A stretch of DNA of 54,511 nt. Source: a virus. The stretch covers positions 1 to 54,511 of IMG/VR virus record IMGVR_UViG_3300025695_000014. One strand, written 5' to 3'. A model generated the notes under the pieces. The model was not told where the DNA came from. It made no database searches and saw nothing but the letters and a program-made list of their open reading frames with translations. Shown here in pieces: positions 10,425-38,400 of the stretch. A program made the position numbers and the translations under genes. Positions within the stretch are counted from its first letter, which is position 1. The number at the start of each line of letters is the position of its first letter.

Positions 10425-10822
10425 TTGGTCAGTCCTTTGACCTTTTCTACTGTTCTCAAGCCGCCAAGTCCTAACATTCCAAGAAGCACAGTCATTAGGC
10501 TATCCATGTCAAACACAGGCAACTCAGGTAGTTCCATACCTGCCATCCCTGCACCGAAAATGATGAACGGAGCTAGGATAAAATGCCATGCCATCGCAAA
10601 AGAAAGCACCCACCCAAGAAAGGGACGCCAACCCGCTACAAAAATAGACCGATGCTGGGCTTCGGCCTTGTTTATTTCGAGTTGCCCCATCGCTTGTTGC
10701 TGGGCATGTTTTTGAGACATCGTGGCTATTTCGTGAGCCAGCTTTGCCTTTTGGTCTTTGTCTTCAATGAACTGGTCAAGAAGATTTGTTACGGGACCGA
10801 TAAGATTTGCTAACATTTCCAT
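10421..10822 (-). CDS. Holin, 3TM gene-transfer-agent type (133 aa)
   Basis: The cytoplasmic N-terminal helix region (residues 1-58) is charged. 'RPFLGWVLSFAMAWHFILAP' follows at about 66-85, then a further hydrophobic segment, and 'LLGMLGLGGLRTVEK' near the C-terminus. This pattern is that of the 'holin of 3TMs, for gene-transfer release' family common in alphaproteobacterial phages. It should form lesions that release the lysozyme encoded two genes on. Its ATG overlaps the end of the DUF6321-like gene. Confidence 0.85.
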   Translation of the reverse strand: MEMLANLIGPVTNLLDQFIEDKDQKAKLAHEIATMSQKHAQQQAMGQLEINKAEAQHRSIFVAGWRPFLGWVLSFAMAWHFILAPFIIFGAGMAGMELPELPVFDMDSLMTVLLGMLGLGGLRTVEKVKGLTK

Positions 10823-11106
10823 CTCTTTCTTGCTTGGCGAAGACGACTGTTTGGGTCTTTCGCTGCTTTCGGAAACTTCTTCATTTGTCCGGCAGACCGC
10901 GCACAGAAAGACTTGCGTCGCTTGGCGTCCTTGCTTCCGGCTTTTACCTTTCCGGTCACCGCTGTTTTGAGCTTCGAACCGGGATTCTTTTTTCTATATT
11001 CCTTGACGCCTTTTGCTGTCATACCCGCACCAGACTTGGTAGGGCGATAGTTCGCGCCTTTTCCTGTCGTGGTTCGTTTGATGGGGTTTTCTTTTTTGCG
11101 TGGCAT
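10810..11106 (-). CDS. Basic conserved protein, DUF6321-like (98 aa)
   Basis: Strongly basic, with 'MTAKGVKEYRKKNPGSKL' and 'RRKSFCARSAGQMKKFPKAA' followed by 'DPNSRLRQARKRWKC' at the C-terminus. These two blocks define DUF6321, found in very many marine phages and bacteria. Three Cys are present. The start ATG at 11104-11106 is preferred over an upstream TTG. It is the first gene behind a strong promoter and heads the lysis operon. The role is unknown; nucleic-acid binding is plausible from charge. Confidence 0.85.
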   Translation of the reverse strand: MPRKKENPIKRTTTGKGANYRPTKSGAGMTAKGVKEYRKKNPGSKLKTAVTGKVKAGSKDAKRRKSFCARSAGQMKKFPKAAKDPNSRLRQARKRWKC

Positions 11107-11126
11107 AGGGTTTACCCCCGGCAAGG

Positions 11127-11162
11127 TTGATTGCTTATATCATATAAATTAAAAGTCGTCAA
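11127..11162 (-). promoter_or_regulatory. Sigma70 promoter for lysis operon
   Basis: On the minus strand TTGACG (11157-11162) and TATAAG (11134-11139) are 17 bases apart; predicted start near 11127, about 20 bases before the DUF6321-like ATG. The spacer is AT-rich. It sits directly behind a GC-rich hairpin. Confidence 0.75.
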
Positions 11163-15899: not shown

Positions 15900-17826
15900 T
15901 TGCTAATCCTTTCAACATCTCTGCAAAAATCTGGGCTTCGCTAACGTCGTTTACCAAACTGTCGGGATCGATATCCTGTGCAATTGCCAGTTCTCGCATC
16001 AAGTTCGGTATTTTAATGAACGGAGCTAACATAGGGTTGCTGACTGTTTGCAACAGGGTGGTAAGACGTTGGGTACGCACCTCTTTTTGCATAACGGCGG
16101 CAACACCGCGAGGTTTGATCTCCAAATCCCCCTCAATCTCAGGGGAGTCTTCGTTAAATTGCATGTTCCATTGAAATAGCGATTCACCAAGAGGCTTTAA
16201 CAAATGATCGTCAATGTTCTTAATGACCGTTTTAAGAGACAGACTAGCCCCACCAAGAAGCATCGATAGCCCTGCAGCAGTACGTCCTGTACCTGTTACG
16301 CCTGTTTGACCGTGCATAATTGACGGCAGACCTGTTTCTTCGTCAGCTAGTTGGCGACTGATCTGATACATCTGGATGTTTTCACCAGCCGTGTTTGGAA
16401 ACTTGAGACCGTTGATTGCTGTTCCGGTAACACCTGACTGACGTCTGAAAATCTTACCCGGAAAGATATCCATGTTTTGACCCGGCACAAGGCTGGCTTC
16501 ATCAACATCAAACACAAGATTACCCGCAAGAGCGAGGTTATCGATAGCCATCCGAACGTGACCGTTCATAAGCATTTGGGCATCTTCCATGTTTTCGGCT
16601 ACACCAACGCCCCAAATCTGGTACGGATTAATCTCGTAAGGAAAGATTTGATACGGAATACGGTACGGGGTAAATGGGTTAATCACGCACCGAAGAATCT
16701 CGTTGCCACACACCCACACGTTTACTTGAACCTGATCCAGTTCGTCGATGTTATCTCCAATATCCATTCCAACTTCTTGGGCAAACTTTGCGTCAAGAAC
16801 CCCCCAATACTCAAGAACCTCAAAGCGGTTCTCTTGGTAGTAAGATTCAGTTTCGTCTTCACGGATAGTGTCTTCGTAGTATTTGTCTTCGTAGTTTGAC
16901 CCTTTTGCAATAACGTTTTCAATTGCATCTTTGTAAAAATAAGGGTGGCTAAGAAGGTTACGAAGTTGTTGGCGATTCATGCGATGGCGTTGAATAACGT
17001 ATTCGCAATCTTCCATCGATGTAGCGGATGGATCCGGATGAAAGTCCCAAACAGATACGTGTTCGATGCGAGGAACAATCTTTTCGTACGGCATATACTG
17101 CCGACCCATCTCTGTTTTTTCCCACTTGTGGATTCGCTTGTAGTAGTTGAACGGTCCTTTGATGATGCCAGATCCAAGCAAGGCGGATTCAAAGATAGCA
17201 TTGCGAAGGACGTTAACTGCACTGGTATCAAGCAACTGGTCGTGAATTTGCTTTTCCATGTTTAGAGCAGCCTTTTGAGCCGGACTAATCTGAGGCTCAC
17301 CCATAAGAGATGGACCTTCTGCAAGAGGCATACCATTGTATCGATTTTGCATACCCCCAAGAAAATCCAGCGGAGTTGCTTGAGTTGCTCCGGGCGGAAG
17401 ATTTCTTCCATCCCCCGGAAATCCGTACATATCCGTCGGTTCTTGATTTACAATGTCATCAAGGGGTGTGCGAAGATGAGCAAACTCGGCTATTCCTTCC
17501 GGAACAGGGGTTGACTCCACAACAATGGGAAACTTTTTGTTTGAAAACAGAATGTCAACAATTTGCCCGTACGCAGCCAGCACTTTAGTTTTGGTAATTT
17601 TAATAAATACCTTTGACTTTTCAGATTCACGATATTGAGTCGTTGAATCGTAGATGCCGCGAAAGTTTTTGTACGCCTTCAACCAACGCTGCTCGTAAGC
17701 ATAGCGTCCGTTTTCAGAGTCTTCGAACTTCTTTTTGATGTGTTCTGCCAGAGCTGGCATCGCTTCGCTGGGTTCGTAAACTACAACGGGCGTGTCATCT
17801 GCTGGTTCAAGGAAATTATCAGACAT
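15718..17826 (-). CDS. Portal protein (702 aa)
   Basis: Forms the dodecameric ring through which DNA enters and leaves the head. Family signs are the helical N-terminus with 'YEQRWLKAYKNFRGIY' at about 43-58, the wing region with 'GIIKGPFNYYKRI' and 'VWDFHPDPSATSMEDCEYVI', and the 'GTGRTAAGLSMLLGGASLSL' crown/stem region. This architecture is that of large podovirus portals (P22 gp1 / HMO-2011 type, about 700 residues). The last 50 residues are Gly/Pro/Ser-rich. It follows terminase and the recombinase-like gene. Confidence 0.92.
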   Translation of the reverse strand: MSDNFLEPADDTPVVVYEPSEAMPALAEHIKKKFEDSENGRYAYEQRWLKAYKNFRGIYDSTTQYRESEKSKVFIKITKTKVLAAYGQIVDILFSNKKFPIVVESTPVPEGIAEFAHLRTPLDDIVNQEPTDMYGFPGDGRNLPPGATQATPLDFLGGMQNRYNGMPLAEGPSLMGEPQISPAQKAALNMEKQIHDQLLDTSAVNVLRNAIFESALLGSGIIKGPFNYYKRIHKWEKTEMGRQYMPYEKIVPRIEHVSVWDFHPDPSATSMEDCEYVIQRHRMNRQQLRNLLSHPYFYKDAIENVIAKGSNYEDKYYEDTIREDETESYYQENRFEVLEYWGVLDAKFAQEVGMDIGDNIDELDQVQVNVWVCGNEILRCVINPFTPYRIPYQIFPYEINPYQIWGVGVAENMEDAQMLMNGHVRMAIDNLALAGNLVFDVDEASLVPGQNMDIFPGKIFRRQSGVTGTAINGLKFPNTAGENIQMYQISRQLADEETGLPSIMHGQTGVTGTGRTAAGLSMLLGGASLSLKTVIKNIDDHLLKPLGESLFQWNMQFNEDSPEIEGDLEIKPRGVAAVMQKEVRTQRLTTLLQTVSNPMLAPFIKIPNLMRELAIAQDIDPDSLVNDVSEAQIFAEMLKGLANAQQEASQQGQPSGNEQGSMGESGGVPPGANPDDASGVGGGTIGTGSVPVAGEDNFTGET

Positions 17827-19825: not shown

Positions 19826-21522
19826 CAGTAACCAAATACTTCATCTTGAACTTGGTGAACGTGATTCTTAATTGCACCAAGTTGTTTGTGGATGGATGCG
19901 TACCCGCTGGTACGTGTCATTAGCATGTAGCGAAGTGCGTCGTATGCGTGATCTTCTGACTTTGTATCAACGTCTTCGCTGTTGCTTTTAGATAACGGAA
20001 TACCTGCCATTTGTTTGATAACGTTTTGGCAGTTTGAAAAAATACGTAGGCGAGGTTCGTTTGTGTACGGATCGTTTGCAAGGCGACGGTGTATTTCCAT
20101 CTTACCTTGTAGCCTGTTACGGTCGGAGGGTGTCCAACGAACACCTGCTCTCATCATTGTTTCGGCAATTGACGGACCAAACCCCGTTTTGTTCCAACAC
20201 GACGAGTCAAGCACGGTGTAATGGGGTTGAGGGTCAAGTTGCTCTACTTCCATTATTTTATCAGCAAGTTCTTCTGCTGTCAAGTGCTTTACATAAAGTT
20301 CTCGATACACCCAAATATTGTTGTCCCAATCAATAGCACCCCATAGCACACACGAAGGACTCGCGTATCCGTAGTCGGCTGCACGAATGCGGGGCCAATT
20401 GGTCGGAAGATCGAAAGGTTCAACAACGTGTCTACTCCGTGAAAATTCGGGAAAGGCTGCTCCCTCTGCCACATCCCAATCCCCTTCGAGAAGCCGCTTT
20501 CGTTCGACTTCTGGGAGCGACCTCAACATGGCCTCGTATTGACCGTCTGCCATGAGGAAGGGGTTGTCGGTTAACCGTGCCGGAACAAACTTGCGAAAGA
20601 ACAACGGCTCACCTGCTTTTTCGTGACCGTGGGGCCACACAAAGGGTTTTCCGGTATCAATGTCGAACGCAACGTAGCGTTTGTTTGGCTCAATACCGTC
20701 GATGTAGGTTTTCTTTACCCACCACCCTCCGACACCGCCGGGGTTGGCTGTGCAACGCATGTACAAGTGCTGTTGCAACTCCGGATCTGTCGAACGAAGA
20801 CGAGAACGGAGATAATCCCACACGTACGGCGTTGGATATTGGGTTATTTCGTCGATACCAATCCAGTTAAAGGCTTGACCCTGAAAACGGGTAACATCCT
20901 TGTCTTTATCAAGGTAGGTAAACCAAATTGTTGCGCCCGACGGAAAAACCCACGTAGATTTTGATTCACGAAACTTTGCACCGGGAAAGGCTTTGGGGTA
21001 TAACTGACGAGATTTGTCAATTAGTTCGGTAAGCTCATCCAAAGTACGCCTAAGAAGAAGCCCACGATGATTGGGATTGTGACAATAACGTAGGGGATCA
21101 GCAAGTAAAGCAAATGATTTACCACCCCCTGCGGCTCCTCCGTATAAAACGTCTCGTTCGTTTGCACTAAGGAAGTCTTCTTGGGGACCGGGGTTGGGTT
21201 GAAATACAATTTCGCTTTCACCAACAAGTTCGCTAACTGCTGGCGGTAATAAATCGAGGTCAGACTGTTCCAACACCCGTGAACCAGTACCGTTAATAGC
21301 TTTTTCAACTTTACTTGCAGTCTGTTCAAGTTTTCTTGCATAGCGACGCTTATCCTCTGCTGCTTTGGTGGTCTTTTCGGCTCGTTTCTTTGCAGCACGG
21401 ACTCTTTTTTGAGTTTCACGCCTTGCTCGCTCCGCACGAGATATGTTGTACGAGGCTTTGGGGGCGTTGGGGTCTTTTTTTGGTCTACCGCGACGCTTTG
21501 GCTGGGTATCGTCACCCATCAA
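19825..21522 (-). CDS. terL: Terminase large subunit (565 aa)
   Basis: ATP-driven packaging motor plus nuclease. Walker A is GGAAGGGKS (residues 128-136), Walker B WIGIDE (219-224), and the coupling motif is CTANPGG (about 256-262). RNase H-type nuclease acidic residues are Asp382 (AADYGYASP), Asp438 (VLDSS) and Asp527 (HAYDALRY). Unusually, the N-terminal 80 residues are a Lys/Arg-rich extension with RRGRPKKDP, an AT-hook-like motif, suggesting extra DNA binding. It overlaps terS by 11 bp, the usual arrangement. Confidence 0.96.
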   Translation of the reverse strand: MMGDDTQPKRRGRPKKDPNAPKASYNISRAERARRETQKRVRAAKKRAEKTTKAAEDKRRYARKLEQTASKVEKAINGTGSRVLEQSDLDLLPPAVSELVGESEIVFQPNPGPQEDFLSANERDVLYGGAAGGGKSFALLADPLRYCHNPNHRGLLLRRTLDELTELIDKSRQLYPKAFPGAKFRESKSTWVFPSGATIWFTYLDKDKDVTRFQGQAFNWIGIDEITQYPTPYVWDYLRSRLRSTDPELQQHLYMRCTANPGGVGGWWVKKTYIDGIEPNKRYVAFDIDTGKPFVWPHGHEKAGEPLFFRKFVPARLTDNPFLMADGQYEAMLRSLPEVERKRLLEGDWDVAEGAAFPEFSRSRHVVEPFDLPTNWPRIRAADYGYASPSCVLWGAIDWDNNIWVYRELYVKHLTAEELADKIMEVEQLDPQPHYTVLDSSCWNKTGFGPSIAETMMRAGVRWTPSDRNRLQGKMEIHRRLANDPYTNEPRLRIFSNCQNVIKQMAGIPLSKSNSEDVDTKSEDHAYDALRYMLMTRTSGYASIHKQLGAIKNHVHQVQDEVFGY

Positions 21523-21931
21523 TAATTACTCCGCTGTCAGTGTCGTCACTATCTTTGGGTGGTAACAGGACAACACCGTGTACTGCTTGGACGTTGTGGT
21601 TGATTGTTTCTTGCTTTGCAAGTCCAACCCTGTTTAAAAGCGATTCTGCGGCTCTGAAGCGCAGTTCGTCTCCTCTTTCGGGTAGAGGGTTATCAATTGT
21701 GTTAACAAGGCGTGTAGCGGCTCTGAGGGCGTTTGTAGCAAGAAGGGATTTTGTTCGTTCGACGATCTCTTCGGCAAGGGTGTTCTTTAACCAACCGATT
21801 GATCCTCGTGAATATCCGGCGTCGAGAGCAGCAGCAGTCACATTCCCCCCGTTTTCAAACAACAGGGAAAGGAATTGTTGCTGTTGGTCTGTCAATTCCC
21901 GTTCTTTTTTTTGTTGGGGTAGCAGATTCAT
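21512..21931 (-). CDS. terS: Terminase small subunit (139 aa)
   Basis: A 139-residue helical protein with an N-terminal helix-turn-helix ('FENGGNVTAAALDAGYSRGS', about residues 26-45) and a central oligomerisation region, as in Terminase_2-type small subunits. It recognises the packaging site and hands DNA to the large subunit coded next, overlapping by 11 bp. It is the second gene behind the promoter at 22254-22282. Small subunits often bind DNA close to their own gene, so the gene-poor region just upstream is a candidate packaging site. Confidence 0.85.
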   Translation of the reverse strand: MNLLPQQKKERELTDQQQQFLSLLFENGGNVTAAALDAGYSRGSIGWLKNTLAEEIVERTKSLLATNALRAATRLVNTIDNPLPERGDELRFRAAESLLNRVGLAKQETINHNVQAVHGVVLLPPKDSDDTDSGVIIDG

Positions 21932-22246: not shown

Positions 22247-22282
22247 ACTTGTTATTGTATGTTTTTGAACGGGTTGTGTCAA
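22247..22282 (-). promoter_or_regulatory. Sigma70 promoter for terminase/head operon
   Basis: Minus-strand TTGACA (22277-22282), 17-base spacer, TACAAT (22254-22259); predicted start near 22247, giving a leader of about 118 bases before the 64-residue gene. It diverges from the plus-strand promoter at 22354-22382, which has the same -35, -10 and spacing. Confidence 0.78.
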
Positions 22283-22353
22283 GGGGTTAATTTAAAAAAG
22301 GTAAAATCGGGAAAAAAAATAAAATTTGGCTACCCTGTTTCTTACTTTTTTTG

Positions 22354-22389
22354 TTGACAACAGCGAATTTGACCAGTACAATAGAGCAT
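22354..22389 (+). promoter_or_regulatory. Sigma70 promoter of a candidate small RNA gene
   Basis: Plus-strand TTGACA (22354-22359), 17-base spacer, TACAAT (22377-22382); predicted start near 22389. No plus-strand gene follows for nearly 6 kb. A strong intrinsic terminator lies 64 bases after the predicted start. Confidence 0.78.
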
Positions 22390-22426
22390 ACCCTGCCGGG
22401 AATACACCCTATACCACCCCCCTTGC

Positions 22427-22447
22427 CTACATAACCTGTTGCAAACA
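22427..22447. repeat. 21-bp direct repeat, copy 1
   Basis: CTACATAACCTGTTGCAAACA occurs here and at 22497-22517, 70 bp apart, flanking the plus-strand terminator. A shorter relative, GTTGCAAACA, recurs at about 22854-22863. Confidence 0.9.
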
Positions 22448-22452
22448 GGGAT

Positions 22453-22482
22453 ACCCCTCGATACCCGTCGGGGGGTTTTTTG
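22453..22482 (+). terminator. Rho-independent terminator, plus strand
   Basis: 9-bp stem ACCCCTCGA / TCGGGGGGT (one G-T pair), loop TACCCG, followed by T6. Ends the candidate small RNA. Confidence 0.85.
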
Positions 22483-22496
22483 TGTTCTATGCCCGG

Positions 22497-22517
22497 CTAC
22501 ATAACCTGTTGCAAACA
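22497..22517. repeat. 21-bp direct repeat, copy 2
   Basis: Second copy of the 21-bp repeat described at 22427-22447. It lies just past the terminator. Confidence 0.9.
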
Positions 22518-22861
22518 TAGTCATACAATTAACCCAAAATACCCAAATTGATGGCGAGATTGCATACAAGTACCCAGTACCCCGGGGTGGCCCTTGCGTC
22601 CCCCATAGGGGAAATCTTTTCGGTGATCCCAAGGATGCCACCACACCACACACTGCCGCATCAAAACCCCTTCAGTTTCCCACAATGTCGCCCCGTCGGT
22701 TGCATCTATAGAATCCTGCCGGACAAATTCCCCCCAGTGATACCCGTGCAAGTTTCCCCCCGTGATGTGTTGTCGGTGTGTATAATGTTAGCAATACCCG
22801 AACACCTGCCCTGCCGGATTATCCCGTGATATCAACCCACAAGGTATTATTGCCCGTTGCA
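22518..22861. other. Gene-poor region with short repeats (candidate packaging site or origin)
   Basis: No convincing gene is visible; the frames on the minus strand start with TTG or lack a ribosome-binding site. The region holds repeated short words: ATACCCG (22740s and 22790s, also 22460s), CTGCCGGA/G (about 22715 and 22811, also 22392) and GTTGCAAACA (about 22854). Small hairpins include CCCC-ata-GGGG (about 22603-22613) and CCCCGGGG (about 22580). The plus strand is markedly C-rich. Its position just before the terminase operon fits a packaging (cos/pac) site, but an origin is equally possible. Confidence 0.4.
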
Positions 22862-22897
22862 AACAAAAAAACCCCCCAGAGTCTAAACAATGGGGGG
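22862..22897 (-). terminator. Rho-independent terminator, minus strand
   Basis: C6 (22872-22877) pairs with G6 (22892-22897) around a 14-base loop, followed on the minus strand by T7. It ends the small-gene transcript after the 71-residue gene and isolates it from the terminase operon. Confidence 0.8.
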
Positions 22898-23209: not shown

Positions 23210-23569
23210 TTATGCCGCCTCAATCAAGCGATATTTTGCCTTGCGTGAACGGGCATAACTGGTCTGGATATCATAACCATATGAACGCAACCGCCATATC
23301 GTCTGATAAACACTTTTTGGCTTCAATCCGGTTTCCCGTACAATCGTGTTGATTGATACAGGATAAGCCCTCGACGCCAAGACGCGAACAACGGCATTGT
23401 CACCCCGTGACACTTTGATATCGGATTCACGGTTGACGGTTGGTTTGGCTGGCTTAACTGGCTTGCCCAGTTCCTGCCATGCCATATTAACAAGCCGCCC
23501 GTTAGCTTCCGAATTCTCACGGATAGCCATAAGGATTAACTTTAGTTTTTCATGGTTACGGTAATTCAT
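23210..23569 (-). CDS. Winged-helix DNA-binding protein (119 aa)
   Basis: The N-terminal helix region (MNYRNHEKLKLILMAIREN…) is followed by a Lys/Pro linker. A C-terminal winged-helix fold at about residues 55-119 has 'DNAVVRVLASRAYPVSINTI', 'VRETGLKPKSVYQTIWRLRS' (recognition helix) and a basic wing 'YARSRKAKYRL'. It is likely a transcription regulator. The start at 23567-23569 is chosen for AAGGA 9 bases upstream; a longer form from 23635 lacks a ribosome-binding site. It sits among small early-type genes. Confidence 0.75.
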   Translation of the reverse strand: MNYRNHEKLKLILMAIRENSEANGRLVNMAWQELGKPVKPAKPTVNRESDIKVSRGDNAVVRVLASRAYPVSINTIVRETGLKPKSVYQTIWRLRSYGYDIQTSYARSRKAKYRLIEAA

Positions 23570-23592
23570 AGCGTTTTTCCTTTCATCAGTTG

Positions 23593-23670
23593 CTATAAAA
23601 TTGCTGATACTATGGCAATCAATAAGATTATCCATGCGATCTTAAAAGCGGAATTGATTATCTCGTGCAT
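23593..23670 (-). CDS. Possible 25-residue membrane microprotein
   Basis: A 25-codon frame starts in a TGATG overlap with the stop of the DUF932 gene: MHEIINSAFK, then a wholly hydrophobic helix (IAWIILLIAIVSAIL). No good Shine-Dalgarno is visible, so translation would rely on coupling to the upstream gene. It fills the gap before the winged-helix gene. Confidence 0.4.
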   Translation of the reverse strand: MHEIINSAFKIAWIILLIAIVSAIL

Positions 23671-24698
23671 CACGCCGCCATCACTTCCTGCCAAACTGGC
23701 GACTCGATAACCTGCCGGACAGCCTCGCCGCGAACACGCCGGACGTTGGCATGATTAGCCTTGTCGTTACCTGCCCGAATCGTTTTGCCTTCATCGGTGG
23801 TTATCTGGTGGTTAGTATGGGTTGACCAATGCGTTAAGGCATTATACGCCGTCCATGCTGTATTCCCCAGTTCCGCCACATCGTCCTGATAAAGACCAAG
23901 CAAGTAATTCAACTTGGTTTCATTCACCGGATTAACTAGCCCGGCATCGGTCGCGTGGTTTTCTTTCCGGCACAAAGTCACGGACAGGATATCCGCGAAT
24001 TGCTGACGGGTCATCTCGGTATTTTGCCAGACGCGCATCTGGTCAACCTGCCCAGACCATCCGGCAAGCCCCAGAGCCGCCTTTGTCATCATGCCATCAA
24101 CCGATAGATTAGCCGTGTGTTTTGCCTTCTGTTGATACGCCTTAGATCCACCAAAGACTAGAGTATTGCGGCACAAGTCACGGTATGCACCGCTGAACAC
24201 TTGGAAAGCCCAAGACATATCCACCGAATTAAAGACATCAATACGACACCGGACAACATCCCTGCCGTCACTTATCCCTGCCGCAAGGTCGTGGAAATAG
24301 ATAGTCCGGTGGGCGCGAGTTCCGGCATCATATAGCCTATCCACAACTTCAACATTGCCGTCGGTCGGTAGGTCGGAATCAAAAAGAACCTGCGCCTGCT
24401 GTTCGAAAAGTTTATCATGGCTGACCAGATTATAGCCTTCGGTTACAGGTCGAACGGGCATCACTTCATTAATAGCGGAATTAAACAGGGCATAATATCC
24501 GCCAACTGGTCGTGGCTCAGTCACGATTAAGGATTCAGAAGTCTTAACCGGAACAATTGCATCAATAGGCAATTTCCGAATCTTGGTAAATTTACTGTAA
24601 AGACTAAAATCCCCTATATCATGATGCGTTGACCAAATATTAGCACCCTTAGCCATAGCCTTAGACGCCGCATTATCACTTGTAGTAATATCTAACAT
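23670..24698 (-). CDS. DUF932 family protein (342 aa)
   Basis: Matches the DUF932 (plasmid/phage-like) protein family: 'VMPVRPVTEGYNLVSHDKLF' in the first third, 'VDMSWAFQVFSGAYRDLCRN' in the middle, 'TAYNALTHWSTH' near the C-terminus. The length of 342 is usual. Family members occur on plasmids and phages and have no agreed function. It sits alone between two terminators with GAAAGG before its ATG. Its sequence appears richer in GCC/CCG codons than the neighbouring genes, which may reflect recent acquisition. Confidence 0.85.
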   Translation of the reverse strand: MLDITTSDNAASKAMAKGANIWSTHHDIGDFSLYSKFTKIRKLPIDAIVPVKTSESLIVTEPRPVGGYYALFNSAINEVMPVRPVTEGYNLVSHDKLFEQQAQVLFDSDLPTDGNVEVVDRLYDAGTRAHRTIYFHDLAAGISDGRDVVRCRIDVFNSVDMSWAFQVFSGAYRDLCRNTLVFGGSKAYQQKAKHTANLSVDGMMTKAALGLAGWSGQVDQMRVWQNTEMTRQQFADILSVTLCRKENHATDAGLVNPVNETKLNYLLGLYQDDVAELGNTAWTAYNALTHWSTHTNHQITTDEGKTIRAGNDKANHANVRRVRGEAVRQVIESPVWQEVMAA

Positions 24699-38046: not shown

Positions 38047-38050
38047 AGAT

Positions 38051-38124
38051 AAGGGTGTAGCTCAAATTGGATAGAGCGTCTGTATCCGTTCAGACTGTTG
38101 TGGGTTCGATTCCCATCACCCTTA
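38051..38124 (+). tRNA. tRNA-Arg-like gene (CCG) with 8-nt anticodon loop
   Basis: Acceptor AAGGGTG / CACCCTT, D arm GCTC…GAGC, T arm GTGGG-TTCGATT-CCCAT are intact. The anticodon stem GTCTG / CAGAC encloses eight bases, TATCCGTT, instead of seven, with no separate base 26. T33 followed by CCG would give tRNA-Arg(CCG). Position 37 is T rather than a purine. CCA is not encoded. It may be a true but unusual tRNA or a decayed one. Confidence 0.6.
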
Positions 38125-38400
38125 TAGGGAAAGGTTGTATCGCCCTTTATAATAGGATTAACACTCTACGGCTGCTGCCTATATATTAGAGTATGATGCG
38201 TGACATCAACCCTACTACTCTAAGTGCTGCAGCAACCATCCTGCTCCCTAATTCTAGTCAAGGGGTTTGGTGGGTACTAGACCAGCAGGATAAAGTCCTG
38301 AGCATGACTTAAAAAGGCTCACTTATTGTCTTGTATATAAGTCATTAAAGGGCTTAACGACTGACATATAAGACATGGTTAGGATGAAAGAGAGAAAGCA
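38125..38400 (+). other. Non-coding stretch with strong RNA structure after tRNAs
   Basis: No gene is visible. Perfect inverted repeats are ACTCTA…TAGAGT (about 38163 with about 38190), ATCCTGCT / AGCAGGAT (38238-38245 with 38284-38291), nested CTAGT / ACTAG (38254-38258 with 38276-38280) and AAGTC / GACTT (38294-38311). It could be a processed RNA, a leader or a further RNA gene cotranscribed with the tRNAs. Confidence 0.45.

What the first reader, a model, noticed from the sequence alone, without database searches (positions are those of the whole stretch)
22354..22482. Antisense-oriented small RNA gene with its own promoter and terminator
Plus-strand TTGACA-N17-TACAAT (22354-22382) is followed 64 bases after the predicted start by a 9-bp-stem intrinsic terminator with T6 (22453-22482). 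All neighbouring genes run on the other strand, and no plus-strand ORF follows for nearly 6 kb. The ~94-nt product contains a hairpin formed by one copy of a 21-bp repeat whose second copy lies just beyond the terminator. The promoter is arranged back to back with an equal-strength promoter for the terminase operon. A dedicated phage sRNA or packaging-related RNA here appears undescribed to me; I could not search.
Basis: partly seen in the sequence, partly recalled or inferred. Interest (0 to 1): 0.8.

Follow-up and report, generated by a model that had tools for sequence, protein, structure and literature searches.

The report
Conserved untranslated RNA beside terminase genes
In a common group of marine viruses of bacteria, a strong promoter facing away from the DNA-packaging genes appears to make a short RNA that starts like one of the virus's own messenger RNAs but carries no gene; it recurs in dozens of related viruses, so it probably matters, but what it does is unknown.

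Summary
The window is an HMO-2011-type podophage contig. TTGACA-17-TACAAT (22354-22382, +), a terminator with T6 (22453-22482) and the back-to-back terS promoter (22282-22254, -) are all where stated. This is not chance. An unbiased scan of IMG/VR for the promoter plus its downstream motif CCYGCCGGG gave 113 sites, 96 of them 47-422 nt from a divergent terS. The terminator is conserved in the window's own subclade; overall 21 of 58 distinct leaders have one at about the same place (0.4% in shuffles). New here: the transcript starts with the same leader module, GCCGGG..UA.ACCC, as a probable late mRNA of the same phage (11162-11104, -), but has AUA where that mRNA has AUG. The 21-bp repeat is one case of a lineage-specific motif, usually in two or three copies. 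Neither TerS nor a neighbouring winged-helix protein tracks its sequence. A conserved C-rich DNA box follows at about +130 to +250. The promoter and untranslated transcript are well supported from sequence; transcription itself is untested. "Packaging-related" is not supported, and trans-acting sRNA is only one option. Best guess: a start-codon-less, cis-acting leader transcript coupled to the terminase promoter.

The parts
22254..22282 (-). P-: promoter TTGACA-17-TACAAT of the terS/terL (probable late) operon, back to back with P+
   Evidence: divergent partner also seen in most relatives
22354..22382 (+). P+: promoter TTGACA-17-TACAAT of the untranslated RNA
   Evidence: same place in nearly all relatives that reach it; 96 of 113 unbiased hits are divergent from terS
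22386..22396 (+). Dyad just after the -10 (GCA..TGC here, up to 5 bp in relatives); its arms covary across lineages, but the 5' arm lies where the discriminator should be, so it may not be wholly in the RNA
22395..22413 (+). Leader module GCCGGGAATACACCC-T-ATA shared with the late mRNA leader at 11122-11104 (-), ATA in place of ATG; small hairpin GGG/CCC
22427..22447 (+). Copy 1 of the lineage-specific repeat (CTACATAACCTGTTGCAAACA), inside the RNA
22453..22481 (+). T+: intrinsic terminator, stem ACCCCTCGAT/GTCGGGGGGT and T6
   Evidence: conserved in L003, L004, L006 and present in 21/58 distinct leaders
22497..22517 (+). Copy 2 of the repeat, just beyond T+ and abutting the conserved box
22521..22605 (.). 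Conserved DNA box: CATACAATTAACCC, AAATTGATGGCG, TTGCATACA and GTACCCAGTACCCCGGGGTGGCCCTTGCG; similar C/G-rich stretches by eye in HTVC103P, HTVC033P, CRP-1, CRP-603
22866..22897 (-). T-: terminator of the leftward upstream operon, facing P+
11104..11162 (-). Second promoter and leader in this phage: TTGACG-17-TATAAG ... CCTTGCCGGGGGTAAACCCTATG, start of a small basic protein gene (10810-11106)
   Evidence: many relatives
21512..21931 (-). terS, terminase small subunit (weak profile matches)
23210..23635 (-). Winged-helix (HTH_36-like) protein encoded at the same place in relatives

Best explanation
P+ is a real sigma-70-type promoter, conserved across a large clade of HMO-2011-type phages, that makes a short untranslated RNA (about 90 nt in this lineage, ending at T+). 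The RNA is a start-codon-less copy of the phage's own late promoter-leader module, placed back to back with the terminase promoter. I infer that it acts in cis: P+ fires together with the late promoter P-, most transcripts stop at T+, and those that read on cross the conserved DNA box and collide with the 3' end of the leftward early operon. Shown from sequence: promoter, leader similarity to an mRNA leader, terminator, absence of an ORF, conservation, divergent placement with terS. Inferred: transcription itself, its timing, T+ efficiency and the cis role. My confidence that it is a genuine untranslated transcription unit is about 0.85; in the cis role, about 0.4.
For: P+ in nearly all relatives reaching the region. 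96 of 113 unbiased promoter+motif hits lie 47-422 nt (median 321) from a divergent terS, TerS identity 38-100%. Arms of the dyad covary: stems of 4 bp or more in 23/44 distinct leaders vs mean 13.4, maximum 19 in 2000 shuffles; all 11 distinct mRNA leaders fold as two tandem hairpins. T+ in 21/58 leaders vs 0.4% of shuffles. The same leader is at 11162-11104 (-) before an ATG, and of 116 exact GCCGGGGGTAAACCC sites read in IMG/VR loci 74 have a promoter directly upstream and 55 an ATG within 9 nt. In four further large contigs genes right of P+ run mostly leftward for about 5 kb, so P+ lacks a credible downstream gene. SAR11 phage HTVC115P (TerL 52%) has promoter + CCTGCCGGGA + terminator in the same divergent gap.
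Against: No transcript data. About two thirds of distinct leaders lack a recognisable T+, so a short defined product is not universal. If the start site lies 6-8 nt after the -10, the 5' arm of the dyad is not transcribed and its covariation is unexplained. The repeats and the DNA box could be the functional elements, with P+ incidental. Sequences are related, so shuffle tests overstate significance.
Confidence: 0.42

Rival explanations
1. Trans-acting regulatory RNA or sponge: repeat copies in the untranslated RNA bind a host or phage RNA or protein, and the motif changes as the partner changes.
For: Lineage-specific motif kept the same between copies within a phage; in type A (ACTGTTTTG) the flanks pair so that the motif lies in loops (11 of 1000 shuffles as good); copies form the terminator hairpin in several lineages.
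Against: Loop display not significant for the other types tested; no consistent complementarity to phage translation starts in 14 contigs; in the window copy 2 lies beyond T+; some lineages have one copy.
Confidence: 0.25
2. Replication-origin element: P+ transcription opens or primes a nearby origin made of the repeats, an A/T-rich stretch and the conserved C-rich box.
For: Conserved non-coding DNA box with no consensus RNA fold next to direct repeats and a promoter pointing into it; transcription-activated phage origins exist (own knowledge).
Against: Only one to three repeats; no initiator identified: the winged-helix neighbour does not track the repeats; GC skew follows gene strand and gives no origin signal.
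Confidence: 0.15
3. Relic of an early promoter: in HTVC115P/HTVC103P the rightward early genes follow P+; in this clade the block to the right reads leftward and P+ is a leftover.
For: Gene order in HTVC115P and HTVC103P versus this clade.
Against: Promoter and motif remain intact in dozens of diverged relatives, and terminators recur at the same place, which a relic would not keep.
Confidence: 0.1
4. Packaging signal (cos/pac) with repeats as TerS sites, or a packaging RNA.
For: Next to terS; conserved box plus repeats recalls lambda cosN-cosB (own knowledge).
Against: L078 and L080 have nearly identical TerS, including the N-terminal region, but different repeats; contig ends do not cluster at the box (by eye); in CRP-603 the comparable gap lies several genes away from terS.
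Confidence: 0.06
5. Chance promoter and terminator.
For: Counts of weaker consensus matches equal shuffles.
Against: Conservation.
Confidence: 0.02

Closest known systems
Phage-encoded small RNAs with own promoter and terminator (for example lambda oop; own knowledge)
   Same: Short untranslated transcript from a host-type promoter with an intrinsic terminator in a control region
   Different: oop is antisense to cII; here the short form overlaps no gene, shares an mRNA leader, and carries lineage-specific repeats
Phage HK022 put RNAs (own knowledge; not tested by alignment)
   Same: Two tandem small hairpins near the 5' end, the same module on two transcripts of one phage
   Different: No sequence match to put was tested or seen; no evidence of antitermination; part of hairpin 1 may be upstream of the start site
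HTVC115P gap RNA (same group of phages, unannotated)
   Same: Promoter opposite to terS, CCTGCCGGGA and terminator at about 95 nt
   Different: Rightward early genes follow; window-type repeats not seen there
lambda cos / pac sites (own knowledge)
   Same: Repeats and a conserved box near terS
   Different: Repeats do not track TerS; no evidence of DNA ends here

Membership tests
Phage small RNA gene | Own promoter | tested here: met
   Consensus promoter, conserved
Phage small RNA gene | Defined 3' end | tested here: inconclusive
   Terminator in the window subclade and 21/58 leaders, none recognised in the rest
Phage small RNA gene | No translated ORF | tested here: met
   ATA in place of ATG; the only mechanical ORF across the region starts upstream of the start site (22326-22520)
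Phage small RNA gene | Transcript observed | not testable with these tools
   No transcript data available
Any described Rfam family | Score above gathering threshold | tested here: not met
   Only two tRNAs in the window
HK022 put antitermination RNA | Two 5' stem-loops on the nascent transcript | tested here: inconclusive
   Tandem hairpins in mRNA-type leaders; the 5' arm may not be transcribed
HK022 put antitermination RNA | Suppresses downstream terminators in cis | not testable with these tools
   Needs a reporter assay
cos/pac site | Repeats follow TerS specificity | tested here: not met
   L078 vs L080
cos/pac site | Virion DNA ends at the site | tested here: inconclusive
   No end repeats in 16 contigs; contig ends scattered by eye
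Tyrosine-integrase attP | Integrase encoded in the phage | tested here: not met
   No PF00589 match in the window and three of four relatives
Iteron-type origin | Repeats co-vary with a DNA-binding initiator | tested here: not met
   For the winged-helix neighbour only; other proteins not tested

The most novel reading that the evidence does not exclude
HMO-2011-type phages use a transferable promoter-leader module (GCCGGG..UA.ACCC) both on a late structural-region mRNA and on a start-codon-less transcript opposite the terminase genes, where the nascent leader acts as a processive regulatory element (put-like) and the lineage-specific repeats are the signature of an arms race with an unknown partner.
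Probability: 0.12. Interest if true: 0.8.

Novelty: new variant of a known kind. Interest (0 to 1): 0.5.

Why it matters
HMO-2011-type phages are reported among the dominant marine viral groups (PMC9038755), and no regulatory RNA or promoter architecture was found described for them in the papers searched. A conserved untranslated transcript next to the terminase promoter, sharing a leader with an mRNA and carrying fast-changing repeats, gives a concrete entry point to how these phages control late genes, and a pattern that can be looked for in marine metatranscriptomes.

Tried and rejected
Rfam at gathering and at permissive thresholds: nothing relevant. DNA search of annotated phages with the region: no match. 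TerS as reader of the repeats: rejected by L078/L080. Winged-helix neighbour as reader: rejected because WIN and L006, or L080 and L136, share repeats but have very different domains. attP: no integrase in most. Seed pairing of the repeat with phage translation starts: no consistent signal; the best single case, G009 at z -2.7, is unsurprising among 14. Loop display as a general rule for repeats: only type A. RNA structure in the conserved box: none found. MAFFT-based pair counting of the dyad was spoiled by sliding of the helix, so leaders anchored on GCCGGG were used instead. GC skew as an origin signal: uninformative. Copies of the 13-mer CCTGTTGCAAACA at 16045 and 40614 (-) are more than expected by chance, but the pattern is not repeated in most other contigs.

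Full report
WHAT THE WINDOW IS. The window is a whole IMG/VR virus record of 54,511 bases without end repeats. Its terminase large subunit is closest among annotated phages to those of the HMO-2011 group (Roseobacter CRP phages, Pelagibacter HTVC115P, Puniceispirillum phage HMO-2011; 49-58% identity). Packaging and structural genes run leftward from terS (21512-21931), a second leftward block occupies about 22.9-27.8 kb, and the replication module runs rightward from 28132.

THE OBSERVATION. All the stated elements are present at the stated coordinates. Taken one by one they would not impress, since consensus matches of the ordinary kind are as frequent in shuffled sequence. The case rests on relatives.

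CONSERVATION. Eighty relatives were fetched through TerL (83-100% identity). Nearly every one whose contig reaches the place has a TTGACA-17-TAnnnT promoter pointing away from terS. After it comes CCCGCCGGG or a close variant, an A/T-rich piece and CCC. Searching all IMG/VR for promoter plus CCYGCCGGG, without asking for terS, gave 113 sites in the loci read; 96 lie 47-422 nt (median 321) from the start of a divergent terS gene, with TerS identity down to 38%. T+ is kept in the window's own subclade despite sequence change. Overall 21 of 58 distinct leaders have a good terminator, typically some 65-120 nt after the -10, against 0.4% of shuffles. In the other lineages I found none, so the 3' end there is unknown.

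A SHARED LEADER. The sequence right after P+ in the window, ACCCTGCCGGGAATACACCCTATACC, closely resembles a second place in the same phage, minus strand 11130-11102: AACCTTGCCGGGGGTAAACCCTATGCC. That one also follows a promoter (TTGACG-17-TATAAG) and leads straight into the ATG of a small basic protein gene (10810-11106, -) in the structural region. Where the mRNA has ATG the plus-strand RNA has ATA. In IMG/VR, 74 of 116 exact copies of GCCGGGGGTAAACCC read here have a promoter directly upstream and 55 an ATG within 9 nt. Some contigs carry both versions, for example IMGVR_UViG_3300006752_000103. So the transcript begins as a copy of a phage promoter-leader module without a start codon. Calling the mRNA late is inference from its position among structural genes.

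A COVARYING DYAD, WITH A CAVEAT. Between the -10 and GCCGGG there is an inverted repeat whose arms change together: GGGTC/GACCC, AGGAC/GTCCT, GGGTT/AACCC, GGCT/AGCC, AACGG/CCGTT. With arms anchored on GCCGGG, 23 of 44 distinct leaders have a stem of 4 bp or more, against a mean of 13.4 and maximum of 19 in 2000 shuffles of partners (earlier set 16/23 vs 9.8). In the mRNA version all 11 distinct leaders fold as two tandem hairpins, with GCAA/UUGC changing to GCAG/CUGC. Related sequences inflate such counts. Moreover the 5' arm begins at or within about 2 nt of the -10 hexamer, where RNA polymerase normally does not yet start. Either the start site is unusually close, or the dyad acts in DNA. 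I leave this open. The window itself has only a 3-bp version.

THE REPEATS. The 21-bp repeat is the window's version of a lineage-specific motif, mostly in two or three copies: CACTGTTTTG, TACGTTTTG, ACGTCGGTTT, GGGTCATGC, CCGCTGCAT, AAGTACGCGGG and others. Copies within a phage are alike, copies between lineages are not; some lineages (types D, A1, M) show one copy. The last copy ends a fixed short distance before a conserved box. I tested who might read them. TerS does not: L078 and L080 have nearly identical TerS but different repeats. A winged-helix protein encoded at the same place in all the clade members examined (64 ORF hits) does not either. Base-pairing to translation starts shows no pattern. 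Loop display is significant only in one type. The partner is unknown.

THE CONSERVED BOX. From about 22521 to 22605 lies a DNA element (CATATCGATAAC, AAATTGATGTCG, TTGCATACA/TTGCTAGCA, C/G-rich GGTGGCCC) shared by the clade; similar stretches can be seen by eye in the same gap of HTVC103P, HTVC033P, CRP-1 and CRP-603. No consensus RNA fold was found, so I take it as a DNA site. P+ points into it.

ORIENTATION IN OTHER PHAGES. In the cultured SAR11 phages HTVC115P and HTVC103P the same gap separates the leftward packaging genes from rightward early genes. HTVC115P has there a promoter, CCTGCCGGGA and a terminator about 95 nt on. In the window's clade the block to the right of the gap runs mostly leftward in the four further large contigs checked, so P+ has no credible gene to serve. 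That its promoter and motif persist argues for a function of the transcript or of transcription itself.

CONCLUSION. A conserved untranslated transcription unit is well supported by sequence; transcription is untested. I consider a cis-acting, start-codon-less leader transcript coupled to the terminase promoter most likely, a trans-acting RNA next, an origin-associated transcript third. A packaging role is not supported. No paper found here describes it, but most subscription papers were not searchable.

Noticed in passing
window 11104-11162 (-): Promoter TTGACG-17-TATAAG with leader CCTTGCCGGGGGTAAACCCTATG before a small basic protein gene; the same module recurs widely in IMG/VR contigs.
   Followed up: partly
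window 23210-23635 (-): A winged-helix (HTH_36-like) protein is encoded at this position across the clade but is very divergent between lineages.
   Followed up: partly
window 22521-22605: Conserved C/G-rich DNA box in the gap of many HMO-2011-type phages; function unknown.
   Followed up: partly
window about 16045 and 40614 (-): Extra copies of the 13-mer CCTGTTGCAAACA of the repeat inside the portal-like gene and the 1548-aa ORF; more than chance would give, but not a general pattern in relatives.
   Followed up: partly
window 38050-38125 (+): Second tRNA reported by ARAGORN with a four-base anticodon (tccg), next to tRNA-Thr.
   Followed up: no
window 23670-24698 (-): DUF932 protein in the leftward block right of the gap.
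   Followed up: no
L222, L223, L226, L230, L253 and others: A second promoter class (TTGACATAAAGAATTT..TATAGAATCC) with the leader CCCGCCGGGGGTAAACCC before structural-looking or small basic proteins.
   Followed up: no
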